A DNA stretch of 35,590 nucleotides from Alphaproteobacteria bacterium (GTDB lineage Bacteria > Pseudomonadota > Alphaproteobacteria > Sphingomonadales > Emcibacteraceae). Position 1 is the stretch's first letter. Each line of letters opens with the position of its first letter. Below are positions 1-5,453 of the stretch, one piece after another. Below the pieces are notes generated by a model. That model saw only the letters and a program-made list of their open reading frames with translations. It did no database searches and had not been told where the DNA came from. The stretch spans positions 1-35,590 of the forward strand of contig JAUIDN010000025.1 in NCBI GenBank assembly GCA_030428615.1, given 5' to 3'. Made by a program: the position numbers and the translations under genes.

Positions 1-223
1 TTTAGTTCTCATCTTCATTCCTTACGTCATTACGATGAGATCAAAACCTCTCTTATGTAAATACCTTAAATGGTCTCATAGGCGCTGACGGGGAACAATT
101 TGTGCTTTTTCGAATATATTAAAACCATGTTCGAAATGGCTTACAAAATCAATAAAACCTCAGGTAGATCCTGACAAAAAAATAGCTGAAGTATTTTCAA
201 GCTTTTACATACAATTTCATAAA
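1..223 (+). other. Degraded 5' part of the methyltransferase gene
   Basis: No open frame runs through this stretch, but it still reads like the missing front of the downstream methyltransferase. In the frame of the downstream gene, positions 89-223 give a methyltransferase-like run (around residues CAFSNILKPCSKWL and VDPDKKIAEVF), preceded by an in-frame TGA at 86-88. The next frame gives GLIGADGEQF at 72-101, which would join CAFSN if a single base were restored near 99-103. This suggests at least one frameshift, and a motif I region (Gly-rich SAM loop) lying left of the window or lost. The comparison with family members is from memory. Confidence 0.45.
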
Positions 224-856
224 ATGCTAAAAGCTTACAAAGAACAACCAATAAACTCAAAAGCAAAAGTAAATATCCACACCGGGAATTTCTTGAGCGC
301 GAATAAGAAATTCAACTCTATTGATATGATTATTACAAGTCCTCCGTATGTTACTTCGTACGAGTACGCAGATCTGCATCAGCTATCCTCACTATGGCTT
401 GATTATGTTGATGATTATAGGGAATTAAGAAAAGGTTCGATTGGCAGTTCACAAACAGACTATCGTATTGAAAACGAAGCAAAAAACTTAAATAAAACAG
501 GCAACAAGGTAGTCTTTCAATTAATCAACAAAAATCAATCCCAAGCTAAAGCAGTGGCAAGATACTATTTAGATATGCAGAAAGTTGCAAAAAAATGTTT
601 TAGCATACTTTCAAATAAGTCCGCGGCTGTTTTTGTGATTGGCAATACAGAATACAAAGGCATCAGAATTGAAAACGCACAACATTTAACAGAAGCATTA
701 TATGATGCTGGATTTGATGAAGTGTCCATATCCAAACGAGCGATAACAAACAAAATATTAACTCCTTATCGCGACAATAACGGAAGATTTTCTTCAGATA
801 AGTCAGCAAGAAAAATATATAGTGAAGAATTTATCGTGCTAGGGATTAAGCAATGA
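224..856 (+). CDS. DNA methyltransferase, C-terminal part (5'-truncated)
   Basis: This encodes the catalytic half of an amino-methyltransferase that modifies adenine N6 or cytosine N4 in DNA. The key evidence is motif IV, IDMIITSPPYVTSYEYADLH, around residues 33-52, followed by SSLWL. This matches the TSPPY class in which the SAM-binding motif I lies N-terminal. No motif I (DPFxGSGT-like) is present in the 210 residues, and no Shine-Dalgarno sequence precedes ATG 224, so that Met is probably internal to an originally longer protein. The ATGA overlap at 853-856 couples it to the ATPase gene. Activity is doubtful unless an N-terminal half is supplied from elsewhere. A site-specific methylase of a restriction-modification or defence island is the likely origin. 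Confidence 0.7.
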   Translation: MLKAYKEQPINSKAKVNIHTGNFLSANKKFNSIDMIITSPPYVTSYEYADLHQLSSLWLDYVDDYRELRKGSIGSSQTDYRIENEAKNLNKTGNKVVFQLINKNQSQAKAVARYYLDMQKVAKKCFSILSNKSAAVFVIGNTEYKGIRIENAQHLTEALYDAGFDEVSISKRAITNKILTPYRDNNGRFSSDKSARKIYSEEFIVLGIKQ

Positions 857-3078
857 ATAGCGAGCCGGAAAAACTGCAAATCAAACCCTATGCGCGGTTA
901 TTAACAATGCTTGGTGAACAACTCATTAAAAATGAGAAAGTCGCTCTTATTGAAATAATAAAAAACTCCTATGATGCTGATGCCGATTGGGTAAAAATTC
1001 ATTTTTCAAATTTTGGCCCTAACTATAACGTTCTTAAAAACTCAAAAATTATTATCGAAGACAATGGTGAAGGAATGAGTGAAGAAGTTATAAAAAAGCA
1101 ATGGCTTCATCCGGCTGCTCCGGGGAAAAAACAACGTAAACAGCATACACCTAGAACGACAAAAGGGCGTGTAATTCAAGGTGAGAAGGGTATCGGGCGA
1201 TACGCGTTATTGAAACTTGGGCGTAAAATAAAAGTTATAACCAGACCTTCAAACGACCAACATGAGTACATCGTTACATATGATTTCACAAATTATGATG
1301 ATGAATTCACTAGTTATAACGGTGAAGATAAGAATATATCACTTGACGATATTGATGTGCTTTTTGAAAAAAGGAAAGCGGAGGTCATTGTAAAAAAAGA
1401 AATTGACTTGGAAAATGGGACCGCTACGAGAGATAAATTTGGAACAAGAATTGAAATATCAAACTTAACAACAGCTTGGACCGAAAAAAAAGTGATAGGC
1501 GTTTTTAACGACATTCAAAAACTAAGAGGTGCGATACCTGACAAAACAGAGGCAAACCAAAGCATTTCGGATTTTAACGTATCTATTTTTCATAATGATA
1601 AATTAAAAAACTACGGCGAGGAAATTCAACAAAAATTATCGTTGCTAATCGATGAACGTGCAGTATTTAGAATACACGGGACATATGAGGAAAAAAAGAA
1701 ACGGTTTAATTACTATCTGAATGAAAAGAAGAAAATACTAAACCTTGAAGATTTAGAAGGATTATCTCTATATCGAAAAACTATAAAAGAAGATTTTGAC
1801 TTTAGAAAACGAACATCTGACTGTGGTGATTTTAACTTCGTATTTTACGTATTTGATTTTAATCCCTCCGCTCCTGGAAAATATAAATTAGAAAAAGATG
1901 ATAAAAACCTTATTAAATCTCACAGAATATACCTATTCCGAGATGGGGTAAGGATTTATCCTTACGGGGATCCTGATGATGATTGGCTTCATATCGATCA
2001 ATACAGAGGAACAATTTCCGCAGGTGATTTCCTAAGTAACGATCAAATTATGGGTAAGGTTAACATCACTCACGAACACAATCCAAAATTAATAGACAAA
2101 ACAAATAGAGAAGGATTGATTGAAGAAGGAACCTCAACCACCGACTTCATTAGCTTATTACAATTATTTTTGACTGAATTAAGGAAGGGTGAATACAAAC
2201 GGTATATTGAAAAGAATAAAAACAATAAAAACGAAATTGACGTATTTAAAGGCAACCGTGTACAGCAAGAAATTCAAAAACTCAGAGAATCTGTCGAAGG
2301 AAACTCTGCAGCAGAACAAAAACTAAAAGCAACGGAAAAACTTTACCTAGCTGAACGACGATATCTGGTTAAACGTGCAGAAACTACAGAAGAGTTAGCC
2401 GGTGTAGGACTTTCAGTAGAAGCATCATACCATGATGTTTTTTCATTCCTGGAAAAGGTACTAAGAAATCTAGATGATTTGATACGTAATCTCCATAAAG
2501 ATGTAGATATCAAAGAATTAGAAAAGGAGCTGTCTGCTTTGCGGGGAATGGTCTCGTTTTCAGTAGATCAAATGCGCGATGTTCAAATTATGTTTAGCTC
2601 CACAAAACAAAGAAGAAAGAACACCAAGGTTAAGGAAATAGTGGATAAAGTAGTCTATATTTACCAAAGATTATTCAAGAGAGAAGGAATATCATGTGAA
2701 GTCGAGACTATTGGCTCGCCACTGGTTGCCAAAACGACAGATGCCGTCCTTCTCCAATTGTTAATCAATTTATTCGACAACGCTATATACTGGTTGAACG
2801 TAAAAGAACCAAAGAACAAAGAAATTCGAGTTACACTAGATGGTCAAAATCGTCAGTTGATCTTTTCAGATAACGGCCCGGGGGTTAATGAAGAGGACAA
2901 ACCCTACATTTTTTCTCCTTTCTATTCAGGCAAAGGGGATGATGGTCGTGGGCTTGGCTTGTATATTGCACAACAATTGTTAGATCGACACGGTTACGGC
3001 ATTGATTTAGCTGACAATAAACTTGATGAATTATTGCCCGGAGCAAATTTCGTCGTAAGTTTTATATATGAGGAGTGA
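853..3078 (+). CDS. Dual GHKL ATPase / histidine-kinase-like protein
   Basis: A 741-residue soluble protein with two separate Bergerat-fold ATPase domains. The N-terminal one has the N-box E34...N38 with YDADAD, G1 EDNGEGM (about 70-76) and G2 GEKGIGRYA (about 110-118), resembling HSP90/MutL/MORC-type ATPases. The C-terminal one has NLFDNAIYWL (about 640), SDNGPGV (about 672), FSPFYSGKG and GRGLGLYIA (about 698-706), as in histidine kinases. Before it lies a helical segment with ASYHDVFSFL, where H527 sits like a DHp phospho-acceptor. No membrane segment or sensor domain is seen. It overlaps the methyltransferase stop by four bases (ATGA) and is followed three bases later by a receiver-like gene, so phosphotransfer or ATP-gated control of a defence response is plausible. 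The partner relationship is inferred. The gene is AT-rich compared with 4.65 kb onward. Confidence 0.8.
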   Translation: MNSEPEKLQIKPYARLLTMLGEQLIKNEKVALIEIIKNSYDADADWVKIHFSNFGPNYNVLKNSKIIIEDNGEGMSEEVIKKQWLHPAAPGKKQRKQHTPRTTKGRVIQGEKGIGRYALLKLGRKIKVITRPSNDQHEYIVTYDFTNYDDEFTSYNGEDKNISLDDIDVLFEKRKAEVIVKKEIDLENGTATRDKFGTRIEISNLTTAWTEKKVIGVFNDIQKLRGAIPDKTEANQSISDFNVSIFHNDKLKNYGEEIQQKLSLLIDERAVFRIHGTYEEKKKRFNYYLNEKKKILNLEDLEGLSLYRKTIKEDFDFRKRTSDCGDFNFVFYVFDFNPSAPGKYKLEKDDKNLIKSHRIYLFRDGVRIYPYGDPDDDWLHIDQYRGTISAGDFLSNDQIMGKVNITHEHNPKLIDKTNREGLIEEGTSTTDFISLLQLFLTELRKGEYKRYIEKNKNNKNEIDVFKGNRVQQEIQKLRESVEGNSAAEQKLKATEKLYLAERRYLVKRAETTEELAGVGLSVEASYHDVFSFLEKVLRNLDDLIRNLHKDVDIKELEKELSALRGMVSFSVDQMRDVQIMFSSTKQRRKNTKVKEIVDKVVYIYQRLFKREGISCEVETIGSPLVAKTTDAVLLQLLINLFDNAIYWLNVKEPKNKEIRVTLDGQNRQLIFSDNGPGVNEEDKPYIFSPFYSGKGDDGRGLGLYIAQQLLDRHGYGIDLADNKLDELLPGANFVVSFIYEE

Positions 3079-3081
3079 AAA

Positions 3082-4356
3082 ATGAGCGAATTTATTTGGG
3101 GGCCTGCGATTATTATTGATGATCAAATAAATGATCAACGCAGCGAAATTTGCGAAATAACAAAATTGATTAAGCAGGAAGAAGTTCCGTGCATTGAATA
3201 TGAGCACTTACCGCTAGATACCAATAAGTTTATTGATCATATAGGTTCTATCTCATTTCTTCTTCTTGATTGGGAAATTTTGCCTGACATAGATCCCAAA
3301 ACCCCGTCCCAAGCAAAACAACTGATAATTGCTAGAGAACAAAATAATCTAATAGAATTTTTAAATACTATTTTTGAAAAAACCTTTTTCCCGGTTTTCA
3401 TTTTTACATCTCAGTACAAAGAAGGAGTAGAACAAAGGCTTGAGCAAGAGAGTCTTTTTAATAAATCAGACAAAGGAAATAGGATCTTCATTGAAAACAA
3501 AAGCACGCTGATCAAAAATGACCTATTTGAAACTATAGATAAATGGGTAATAGAAAACCCTACCTTTTACGTGTTAAATGAATGGGACAAACAGTACACA
3601 CAATCAAAAAATGCACTATTTAATGATTTCTATGATCTAAATCACTCATGGCCCCAAGTCCTATGGGAAACTTATGAACAGGACGGCGTTCAGGCTTCAT
3701 TAGGCCTAGGAGAACTAATTACAAAAAACCTACATTCGAGAATGGCACCTTTTGAATTTAATAGCAACTTGTTGGCTAGTGAGCATAAACCCGACAAAAA
3801 TGAACTTAGAAAAGTACTTTCCGGAGAAATTTTCATTAAGGATGAAGGCTTACACAAAGGGACCGTAGATTGTGGGGATTTGTTTGTTTACCAGAAACAA
3901 GGGGCTAAAAAAGAAACATATCTGGTAATAACCCCACAATGCGACTGCATACCGAGGGATGTTAAGCAAGATGATGTTGAACTATATCTTCTAAAAGTAA
4001 AGCACATAAGACCTTCTGATGAACTAAACAAATTTGATATTGGTAAAGGGCGCTTTAAAAAAGAAGGTGAGGCAAAAACAATTATTTTTAATTTGTACGA
4101 TGACAAAAGTTATACTGTTCATCTAAACAAATTAAAAATTATGACTTATAAACAATTAACAACTGATGGTGAATGTGTCGGAAGATTACTACCACCATAC
4201 ATTTATAAAGTTCAACAATTGCATTCCAATTATATCTCTAGACAAGGTCTTCCCAAAATACCAGACTTCGCAGTTCTGGACATACAAGATAGTAGTAGCA
4301 ATATTGGTAACAACATTAAAAATAAAACTGTTGCCGTAAAAAAAAAGCGGGATTAA
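3082..4356 (+). CDS. Receiver-like protein with unknown C-terminal domain
   Basis: A 424-residue protein whose first ~170 residues look like a response-regulator receiver. It has an acidic pair D13-D14 after the strand AIII, a candidate phospho-acceptor D63 in FLLLDWE, T109-S110 in VFIFTSQ, and a lysine in NKSTLIKN. The loop after D63 is longer than in classical receivers. The C-terminal part matches no output domain I recognise. It contains LVITPQCDCIP with C287, D288 and C289, which could bind metal, and a basic tail (KKKRD). No helix-turn-helix was found. It starts three bases after the double-GHKL gene with an upstream GAGG, so the two are one transcription unit and probably a kinase-regulator pair. 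Its role in the methyltransferase-associated module is unknown. Confidence 0.6.
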   Translation: MSEFIWGPAIIIDDQINDQRSEICEITKLIKQEEVPCIEYEHLPLDTNKFIDHIGSISFLLLDWEILPDIDPKTPSQAKQLIIAREQNNLIEFLNTIFEKTFFPVFIFTSQYKEGVEQRLEQESLFNKSDKGNRIFIENKSTLIKNDLFETIDKWVIENPTFYVLNEWDKQYTQSKNALFNDFYDLNHSWPQVLWETYEQDGVQASLGLGELITKNLHSRMAPFEFNSNLLASEHKPDKNELRKVLSGEIFIKDEGLHKGTVDCGDLFVYQKQGAKKETYLVITPQCDCIPRDVKQDDVELYLLKVKHIRPSDELNKFDIGKGRFKKEGEAKTIIFNLYDDKSYTVHLNKLKIMTYKQLTTDGECVGRLLPPYIYKVQQLHSNYISRQGLPKIPDFAVLDIQDSSSNIGNNIKNKTVAVKKKRD

Positions 4357-4649
4357 TTCATTATTTCTGGAACAGATTCAAAAAAATAATTCGCTATGTA
4401 TTTGTTCAGGCTTCTAAATAATCCTAACCACCATCCATTAACTGTTCACCATGAAAAAAGTAAAAATTACTTGGGAACTGCCACCACTTCAATTAAGGAT
4501 GTGGCTTCATATTTACATGTGTATTGATGATGTATCTCTGCACCTTACGTATTCATTAGCGTAACCCCGCCCGTAACAATGCGGAATTTACTCTAATCAA
4601 AGAGGTCAGAGTAAATTGATTTTGCATCTGCACGCTATTGTTCACTAAA
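4357..4649. other. Intergenic boundary of the AT-rich segment
   Basis: This gap separates the AT-rich accessory module from the chromosome-like genes to the right. It lies between convergent genes. It holds a 37-codon frame at 4451-4564 that I do not believe, and an inverted repeat at 4585-4617. No tRNA, attachment-site duplication or transposase remnant was recognised. Confidence 0.5.
4585..4617. terminator. Inverted repeat, possible bidirectional terminator
   Basis: AATTTACTCT at 4585-4594 is repeated perfectly as AGAGTAAATT at 4608-4617 with a 13-base spacer. It lies between the convergent receiver-like and LytTR genes. The stem is AT-rich and followed by GATTTT on the plus strand, so termination is plausible but weak. 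It could also be an operator or an island-end repeat. Confidence 0.4.
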
Positions 4650-5453
4650 TCACCCCAAATTCAGATTTTCATTATATCGACGGGACAGGCGTAGTTCGGT
4701 ACCATCCTTTAAATATATGGTTTTATCGCCGCTTGTAGCGGGTTTGATGCTGTCCAGAAAATCCCGCCGGATGATGGTTGAACGGTGAATACGGGCGAAA
4801 TCCTTCTCCCCCAGCCGTTGTTCGATTTCCTTCATTGTTGCCCGCAGCATATATGTTTCATTGCCCACATGCAGTTCAACATAATTACCGGCCGCTTCCA
4901 CCCAATCAACGCTGGTGGGGTCGATAAATTTGAACATTCCGGATTTGCTGACCATGATCCGCTTTTCTTCGGATTGTTCGATCTGTGCTTCGCCGTGCTT
5001 AAGCCTTAAAATTTCGCGGTAGGCATAGATCACAACAAGAATGGTGATATATGACATTGCGTCCTTGCGATATTCATAAAGGATCGTGTAATTCAGATCG
5101 GTGAAGATATAGTCCCGGCCAACCATCATAAAAACCAGCTTTCGAAGAGCGACCATACCCGTGATATGAACAAATGAGAAAAGCATGCTTAAGGGAACAT
5201 GCATCAACAGCCGTTTGGGCCAGTCACGGCTTGAAATCGGGTAACGTTCATCAAACATCATAATAACCGGAATTAAGCTGAATGCGACCCATGTGCTTGA
5301 AAGTTCCCATGCAAATGGCTCCCATGTCGCGATCGGGTCTCCACGGCCTTCATGCTCCATGATAATCGATGTTGCCCGCACCACCGCTTCTATCGTGACA
5401 TAGCAAAACGCAACCAAAAATAATTTCCAGTGATGTTTAAGCGTTTGGATCAT
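4650..5453 (-). CDS. Membrane-anchored LytTR family regulator
   Basis: A 267-residue protein with about four hydrophobic segments in the first 150 residues (near 10-28, 50-67, 85-105 and 130-147), followed by a LytTR DNA-binding domain. The domain is recognised from the order FIDPTSVDWVEAAGNYVELHV, YMLRATMKEIEQRL, FARIHRSTIIRR and LKDGTELRLSRRY. There is no receiver domain, so the membrane part is presumably the sensor. It starts at ATG 5453 and is divergent from the acyltransferase gene, with 197 bases between, so the neighbour or its own promoter is the obvious target. The signal it detects is unknown. Confidence 0.85.
   Translation of the reverse strand: MIQTLKHHWKLFLVAFCYVTIEAVVRATSIIMEHEGRGDPIATWEPFAWELSSTWVAFSLIPVIMMFDERYPISSRDWPKRLLMHVPLSMLFSFVHITGMVALRKLVFMMVGRDYIFTDLNYTILYEYRKDAMSYITILVVIYAYREILRLKHGEAQIEQSEEKRIMVSKSGMFKFIDPTSVDWVEAAGNYVELHVGNETYMLRATMKEIEQRLGEKDFARIHRSTIIRRDFLDSIKPATSGDKTIYLKDGTELRLSRRYNENLNLG

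What the first reader, a model, noticed from the sequence alone, without database searches (positions are those of the whole stretch)
1..4356. Methyltransferase / double-GHKL ATPase / receiver-like module on an AT-rich segment
Three tightly coupled genes (ATGA overlap, then a 3-base gap) combine the C-terminal part of a DNA methyltransferase, a soluble protein with two GHKL ATPase domains and a receiver-like protein with an unknown C-terminal domain. GHKL ATPases beside DNA methylases are known from restriction-modification islands, and HK-RR-type anti-phage systems exist, but this exact combination does not match a system I can name. The AT-rich composition compared with 4.65 kb onward suggests horizontal transfer. 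Its left end lies outside the window, where a nuclease, helicase or Z1-type gene might sit.
Basis: partly seen in the sequence, partly recalled or inferred. Interest (0 to 1): 0.7.

Follow-up and report, generated by a model that had tools for sequence, protein, structure and literature searches.

The report
Methylase, sensor kinase, toxin-like switch operon
A mobile three-gene cassette, found in many bacterial phyla, joins a DNA-marking enzyme to a sensor kinase and a switch protein with a toxin-shaped tail; it looks like an alarm system against foreign DNA, and in this genome a jumping gene has split the marking enzyme.

Summary
The window starts inside an insertion sequence (IS) that split the methyltransferase (MTase) gene; the 5' half opens contig C26. 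Beyond it I read ordinary chromosomal genes. In congeners the flanking genes are adjacent, so this is a self-contained three-gene insertion. MTase - GHKL/kinase - receiver occurs complete in 74 of the 80 best homologous loci, from 16 taxonomic groups. The kinase model resembles Hsp90/SMCHD1 ATPase modules plus a histidine-kinase core; its His and the checked ATP-site residues are identical in 70 of 70. The regulator is a complete receiver plus a MazF/PemK-like fold without the canonical MazF Arg motif. It is a sister variant of the published, function-unknown HEF_HK/Response_reg_2 systems (PMC8011034): homologous kinase, but neither Pfam model is matched. Best reading: a modification-linked phosphorelay releasing a toxin-like effector. 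Sensing, phosphotransfer, toxicity and defence are inferred, not shown.

The parts
1..97 (-). End of an insertion sequence; its transposase orfA starts here and reads leftwards out of the contig
   Evidence: Matches at C18 and C14 (100%), C25 twice (94%, 91%), C1 and C13 (weaker); orfA of the C18 and C25 copies is HTH_Tnp_1; the other IS end opens C26
98..856 (+). 3' part of an amino-type (N6_N4-like) DNA methyltransferase gene, holding the SPPY motif; the 5' part with the FxGxGT motif is at C26:103-606, minus strand
   Evidence: Residues 170-421 of an intact homologue at 53% identity here, 10-175 at 49% on C26; A3, A6; a shared direct repeat of 8-9 bases at the two junctions
853..3078 (+). 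Soluble-looking sensor kinase, 741 aa: N-terminal GHKL plus middle domain (about aa 1-405), long helical/coiled-coil part, DHp with His527, C-terminal ATP-binding domain (about aa 589-741)
   Evidence: Pfam HATPase_c_3 and HATPase_c; model pLDDT 81.6; Foldseek to Hsp90/TRAP1/SMCHD1 and HK853/LvrB; invariant residues 70 of 70
2431..2433 (+). Codon of His527, the presumed phospho-acceptor, followed by Asp528
   Evidence: His and Asp in 70 of 70 aligned kinases
3082..4356 (+). Response regulator, 424 aa: receiver (about aa 1-158), helical linker (about aa 160-250), MazF/PemK-like barrel (about aa 251-390)
   Evidence: Model pLDDT 92.3; Foldseek PDB and BFVD; conservation. Domain borders read from the model's secondary structure
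3268..3270 (+). Codon of Asp63, the presumed phosphorylation site of the receiver
   Evidence: Asp in 74 of 74; also Asp13 74 of 74, Thr/Ser109 74 of 74, Lys140 74 of 74
3940..3945 (+). Cys287-Asp288 of the C-terminal domain
   Evidence: Cys 74 of 74, Asp 70 of 74
4357..4649 (.). AT-rich right edge of the insertion, up to the flanking LytTR gene
   Evidence: GC 0.355; in four of five relatives LytTR is directly followed by a resident gene

Best explanation
A horizontally acquired three-gene conflict cassette. The MTase marks the host's DNA. The GHKL protein is a sensor kinase whose input part is an Hsp90/MORC-like ATP-driven clamp; I infer that the clamp monitors DNA that lacks the mark or is otherwise foreign and thereby switches the kinase core on. 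Phosphate passes from His527 to Asp63 of the regulator, and the phosphorylated receiver frees its MazF-like domain, which disables the cell or the invader, most simply by attacking RNA. Shown by sequence or model: the operon, its recurrence, its insertion between resident genes, the intact kinase and receiver residues, the MazF-like fold. Inferred: DNA sensing, phosphotransfer, toxicity, defence. In this genome the MTase is broken by a transposon while the kinase and regulator genes stay open.
For: Complete triad in 74 of 80 loci chosen by kinase similarity alone. Empty site in 4 of 5 congeners examined. Invariant His527 and ATP-site residues, 70 of 70, and receiver residues, 74 of 74. MazF/PemK proteins are the top structural matches in two libraries: PDB E 7e-4, the only one under 0.001; BFVD E 4e-5 and 3.2e-4. 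The C-terminal motif recurs in several regulators of PF19192-type loci and in a Campylobacter plasmid regulator. Neighbours look defence-rich.
Against: No functional data. The canonical MazF Arg-Pro motif is absent from the regulators, PF02452 is not hit and profile-profile support is weak (probability 3.7%; 1 of 100 decoys as high). Foldseek did not print query ranges, so the placing of the MazF match in the C-terminal half is by elimination. The kinase model matches Hsp90 only loosely (TMq about 0.3). This strain keeps the kinase and regulator genes with a broken MTase, which sits badly with a toxin triggered simply by missing marks, unless the operon is silent. One viral-contig relative at 41% identity (L099) has room but no regulator found.
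Confidence: 0.5

Rival explanations
1. A regulatory two-component system that tunes the MTase and neighbouring restriction-modification genes; the C-terminal domain binds nucleic acid or protein and is not toxic.
For: PMC8011034 speculates that such kinases and regulators control R-M systems (Discussion); canonical MazF Arg motif absent.
Against: No recurrent target gene beside the triad: the largest neighbour cluster spans 6 loci; the cassette is self-contained.
Confidence: 0.2
2. An addiction module: the MTase and kinase restrain the toxin-like regulator, so that loss of the cassette kills the host.
For: Mobile, rare and patchy: none of 12 same-genus genomes, 1 of 397 other genomes of the phylum; carried by a conjugative plasmid; toxin-like fold.
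Against: The MTase of this strain is interrupted although the kinase and regulator frames are open.
Confidence: 0.12
3. A restriction-modification system in which the regulator's C-terminal domain is a DNA nuclease or gyrase poison steered by a MORC-like clamp.
For: MTase plus paraMORC-type ATPase is the R-M setting of PMC2292703 (passages); N-terminal part resembles a GHKL stretch of type II restriction enzyme models.
Against: No nuclease family is hit in any of the three proteins apart from that GHKL stretch; the fold match is MazF/PemK.
Confidence: 0.1
4. About this copy only: it is a decaying remnant, silenced by the IS, whatever the family does.
For: IS ends 100% identical to other copies, hence a recent hit; the genes downstream share an operon with the broken MTase.
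Against: Kinase and regulator frames are open and their key residues kept. Val282 and Thr284 depart from most of the clade (70 and 68 of 74), but Thr284 also occurs in three distant rows and in the Campylobacter and two PF19192-type regulators.
Confidence: 0.4

Closest known systems
HEF_HK (PF19191) / Response_reg_2 (PF19192) two-component-like systems, Bellieny-Rabelo et al. 2021 (PMC8011034)
   Same: HATPase_c_3 + DHp + HATPase_c kinase beside a receiver protein and a DNA methylase. The kinases beside all 8 PF19192 genes found in 299 genomes match our kinase profile at E 1.2e-60 or better; 4 of the 8 regulators match our regulator profile at E<1e-3 (small search pool), chiefly in the C-terminal part.
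   Different: Neither Pfam model is matched at E<=1 (PF19192 also not in the whole genome). Those kinases are about 1000 aa and the regulators 567-721 aa as ORFs. The MTase here is N6_N4-like; the paper stresses C5 methylases, though its figure legend also names N6/N4 types. Whether those 8 kinases carry PF19191 was not tested.
paraMORC GHKL ATPases of R-M loci, Iyer et al. 2008 (PMC2292703)
   Same: N-terminal GHKL plus a second domain, beside DNA methylases; model resembles Hsp90/SMCHD1 modules.
   Different: Fused to a histidine-kinase core and paired with a receiver; the passages I saw contain no 'receiver' (0 occurrences).
MazF/PemK toxins
   Same: Fold of the regulator's C-terminal half: top matches in PDB and BFVD.
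   Different: No PF02452 hit; Arg-Pro motif (15 of 21 PemK rows) absent; Cys-Asp conserved instead. Fused to a receiver rather than paired with an antitoxin.
GHKL-Shedu protein VcSduA of Vibrio cholerae (PMC12137116, one passage)
   Same: GHKL ATPase module used in phage defence, formerly called paraMORC3.
   Different: Fused to a nuclease, no kinase core, no receiver.
Detocs defensive two-component systems (recalled; not read)
   Same: Works like: kinase plus receiver with a toxic output domain.
   Different: As recalled, no MTase and a different sensor and effector.

Membership tests
HEF_HK / Response_reg_2 system | Kinase matches PF19191 (HEF_HK) | tested here: not met
   Pfam scan at E<=1 lists four families, not PF19191
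HEF_HK / Response_reg_2 system | Regulator matches PF19192 (Response_reg_2) | tested here: not met
   Not listed at E<=1; 0 matches in the whole genome
HEF_HK / Response_reg_2 system | HATPase_c_3 + phospho-His helix + HATPase_c in one soluble kinase | tested here: met
   no transmembrane predictor was run
HEF_HK / Response_reg_2 system | Adjacent receiver gene with the phospho-Asp set | tested here: met
HEF_HK / Response_reg_2 system | DNA methylase beside the pair (mostly C5 in the paper) | tested here: inconclusive
   MTase present and conserved but N6_N4-like, not C5
paraMORC | N-terminal GHKL followed by an S5-type domain | tested here: inconclusive
   Model matches Hsp90/TRAP1/SMCHD1 modules loosely; no assignment to paraMORC1-5 was tested
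MazF/PemK toxin | MazF fold | tested here: met
   Predicted model: 5co7_D E 7e-4, 4mzm_B E 2.2e-3; A0A3G6JHC3 E 4e-5
MazF/PemK toxin | Sequence match to PF02452 or its profile | tested here: not met
   No hit; hhalign probability 3.7% local, 1.25% global
MazF/PemK toxin | Arg-Pro catalytic-loop motif before the second strand (role recalled) | tested here: not met
   Arg at that spacing in 13 of 74 regulators; motif in 15 of 21 PemK rows
Type II restriction-modification | Cognate restriction endonuclease gene | tested here: not met
   Three-gene insertion without a recognisable nuclease; an unrecognised nuclease domain is not excluded
Detocs | Kinase, buffer protein and nucleosidase-type regulator (recalled) | tested here: inconclusive
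   No such hit in PADLOC 2023, which may not hold Detocs models

The most novel reading that the evidence does not exclude
A self-contained modification-dependent abortive-infection system in which an Hsp90/MORC-type ATP clamp reads the methylation state of DNA and passes the signal by a His-Asp phosphorelay to a receiver that unlocks a MazF-fold toxin with a new Cys-Asp active site. The same effector would then explain the unassigned C-terminal part of the published Response_reg_2 regulators.
Probability: 0.35. Interest if true: 0.85.

Novelty: new variant of a known kind. Interest (0 to 1): 0.62.

Why it matters
Two-component systems normally regulate genes. Here a widespread cassette appears to wire one to a DNA methyltransferase and a toxin-shaped effector, with a MORC/Hsp90-type clamp as sensor. 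That gives the published but unexplained HEF_HK/Response_reg_2 systems a candidate effector and a testable function, and bears on what bacterial MORC relatives do. The natural MTase break in this genome raises a sharp question: how does a cell live with the sensor and effector genes when the mark is gone?

Tried and rejected
Left-hand nuclease, helicase or Z1 gene: not found. Among the ORFs of at least 110 aa in C26:1-20000 I read a DUF4412 protein, an NHL-repeat protein, a glutamyltranspeptidase-like protein, RnpA-, YidC-, EngB- and ArgB-like proteins; only the DUF4412 protein was scanned with Pfam, the other names are my reading.

Window edge as the only reason for the short MTase: rejected in favour of an IS insertion. 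The direct repeat alone would be weak evidence, since one search also lists other shared 8-mers away from the junctions; the identical IS ends and the empty site carry the case.

Decay of the regulator because of Val282 and Thr284: considered, not supported.

Profile-profile proof of MazF kinship: tried, weak (receiver and linker segments gave 0.14% and 0.36%). Solved-structure sequence search with the regulator profile: no hit at E<=10. PHROGs: the kinase hits families of unknown function and one named kinase; the regulator hits none. A fourth conserved gene: none; of 500 neighbour ORFs the largest cluster spans 6 loci.

Eight paper searches gave PMC8011034 and PMC2292703 as the direct relatives I could recognise in the listings; the last two listings were capped at 15 of 84 and 15 of 1,094 papers, and subscription papers and preprints are mostly not held.

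Rows dropped: kinases L074 and L077 (long false N-terminal extensions) were left out of A5; L097 and L098 were left out of the tree; the weakest PemK locus L178 was left out of the PemK set.

Full report
WHAT IS THERE. The window is contig C6 of a 3.39-Mb genome in 41 contigs. Their GC is 0.33-0.36 against 0.436 for 4650-35590.

THE LEFT EDGE. The first 97 or so bases match six other places in the genome: two at 100%, two at 94% and 91%, two weaker. The ORF next to two of these ends (C18, C25) is a transposase orfA (HTH_Tnp_1). A genome search with an intact MTase found its C-terminal part in the window (residues 170-421, 53% identity) and its N-terminal part at the start of contig C26, minus strand (residues 10-175, 49%). 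C26 begins with the other end of the same IS type: a copy with both ends in the expected orientation, about 1.5 kb apart, lies at C25:108153-109663. A direct repeat of 8 or 9 bases borders both MTase halves. The MTase is therefore split by a transposon insertion.

A THREE-GENE INSERTION. Upstream of the MTase, C26:857-20000 has 47% GC and, by my reading, ordinary chromosomal genes. In relatives G010 and G008 the homologues of the two flanking genes, LytTR (window 4650-5453) and DUF4412 (C26:857-1747), are 17 and 19 bases apart by match ends. In G012 and G001 no DUF4412 gene was matched and LytTR is followed within 30 and 67 bases by the next gene of C26. In G009 one other gene lies between LytTR and DUF4412. 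So 4 of 5 relatives examined have no insert there, which also supports the C26-C6 adjacency. None of 12 same-genus genomes has the regulator; among 59 relatives in all there is one weak partial match, and 1 of 397 other genomes of the phylum carries it.

RECURRENCE. A scan of the species-genome collection with a three-member kinase alignment gave 150 relatives, of which the best 80 were kept. In 74 of 80 both partners are present in the order MTase - kinase - regulator. Of the six others, four lack room on the contig (L061, L091, L095 for the regulator; L088 for the MTase), L090 has room but no regulator and a shortened kinase ORF, and L092 has room but no MTase found. The loci were picked by kinase similarity, not by partners, but they are the best-scoring ones, and partners were found with profiles iterated on the same pool of ORFs. 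Among 38 viral-contig relatives, three carry both partners (L097, L098, L100, the last with the same length and range as the genome contig of L033); the rest are mostly distant, and L099, at 41% identity, shows no regulator. Intact copies also lie on a conjugative Allorhizobium plasmid and on a 6.2-kb unannotated faecal scaffold deposited as phage.

The tree of 68 kinases needs 20 label changes for 16 groups where 15 is the least possible; labels are far more clustered than chance (shuffled mean 38.8), the window's place is unsupported, and bins can hold foreign contigs, so this shows breadth and some mixing, not a count of transfers.

NEIGHBOURS. Among 500 neighbour ORFs no fourth gene recurs in more than 6 loci. 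A sample of 140 of 304 eligible neighbours hit 297 PADLOC families at 1e-10; 140 of 264 proteins from 20 arbitrary stretches of nine genomes hit 25. Pfam families at 1e-5 were 115 and 146. These are families, not proteins, redundant models inflate them, and the control is from one phylum, so I take it only as a rough sign of defence-rich surroundings.

THE KINASE. AlphaFold2 with 70 sequences gives pLDDT 81.6, lower in the helical middle. Foldseek's top matches are Hsp90, GRP94, TRAP1 and SMCHD1 ATPase modules (TMq about 0.3) and HK853-type kinase cores and LvrB; query ranges are not printed, so the assignment to the two halves rests on the Pfam and phmmer ranges. His527 with Asp528, and 17 further positions checked in the two ATP sites, are identical in 70 of 70.

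THE REGULATOR. The model has pLDDT 92.3. The receiver keeps Asp13, Asp63 and Lys140 in 74 of 74 and Thr or Ser at 109 in 74 of 74; position 14 is Asp in 61, Asn in 7, Glu in 6. For the C-terminal part, MazF is the top PDB match (E 7e-4, the only one under 0.001), with receivers further down; PemK/MazF proteins are the two BFVD matches under 0.001 (E 4e-5, 3.2e-4). That the match lies in the C-terminal half is by elimination. Against a simple MazF reading: PF02452 is not hit, profile-profile scores are weak (3.7%; 1 of 100 column-shuffled decoys as high locally, 0 of 100 globally), and the Arg-Pro motif found in 15 of 21 PemK rows is absent, with Arg at that spacing in 13 of 74. Instead Gly265 (74 of 74), Asp266 (73), Cys287 (74) and Asp288 (70) are conserved. 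The window protein has Val282 and Thr284 where most rows have Asn (70) and Arg (68); Thr284 also occurs in three other rows, and in the Campylobacter regulator and 2 of the 5 PF19192-type regulators looked at.

RELATION TO THE LITERATURE. PMC8011034 (outline, text parts 1-4 of 7 and the Discussion read; [quoted passage not shown] Our proteins miss both Pfam models at E<=1. Eight of 299 genomes of the phylum carry PF19192; the kinases beside all eight match our kinase profile at E 1.2e-60 or better, in separate stretches that leave out a central segment in most; their regulators match our regulator profile at E<1e-3 in 4 of 8, chiefly in the C-terminal part (E-values for a small pool). The Campylobacter plasmid regulator matches there at 5.5e-12, while the Burkholderia plasmid protein does not (E 0.09). 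So this is a sister variant, not a Pfam-defined member. PMC2292703 (passages) proposes DNA looping by paraMORC clamps in R-M loci; one passage of PMC12137116 reports a GHKL-Shedu protein that appears to restrict phage directly; passages of PMC12839542 had nothing on this triad. In the listings of eight paper searches I recognised no description of this triad or of a MazF-like domain on a receiver; recalled systems such as Detocs were not read.

MECHANISM. I commit to a phosphorelay alarm: MTase marks self, clamp-kinase senses foreign or unmarked DNA, receiver releases a toxin-like domain. The parts and their conservation are shown; sensing, phosphotransfer and toxicity are inferred. That this genome keeps open kinase and regulator genes beside a split MTase argues that either the operon is silent behind the IS or loss of the mark alone is not the trigger.

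Noticed in passing
L008:5343-6533, L029:5589-6476, L033:5361-6545, L036:5323-6528, L038:5063-6256, L061:5344-6540, L031:5476-6669, L194:13459-14700: Some loci, the named ones from Pseudomonadota, carry a second MTase of the same family upstream, divergent except in L031 (same strand). It could mark the other strand of an asymmetric site; the window's locus has none beside it.
   Followed up: partly
L047:4084-6753, L074:3401-6685, L077:3324-6545: A much longer gene directly upstream of the triad: an 890-aa N6_N4_Mtase protein in L047, and 1073-1094-aa proteins with weak MTase-profile hits in L074 and L077.
   Followed up: no
L010:5995-10448 (Campylobacter jejuni plasmid): A related kinase, a response regulator with the same C-terminal motif, and a convergent C5 methylase on a conjugative plasmid; 41 Campylobacter plasmid records hit the kinase, of which one was opened.
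   Followed up: partly
L011:5959-11405 (Burkholderia glumae plasmid): A related kinase followed by a 397-aa unknown protein, Vsr and a C5 methylase; the unknown protein does not clearly match the regulator profile (E 0.09).
   Followed up: partly
L012:3992-7040 (Escherichia phage PhiR44_1): A gene annotated ParaMORC3 convergent with a Dcm gene in a phage, between the portal and replication genes.
   Followed up: no
L155:8079-9539: In relative G009 a different single gene (sulfatase-like by my reading) sits between the same two flanking genes, so this spot may accept insertions repeatedly.
   Followed up: no
G000 contigs C18, C14, C25, C8, C11: Several further ends of the same IS, at least three of them near contig ends, so the IS probably broke the assembly at several places.
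   Followed up: partly
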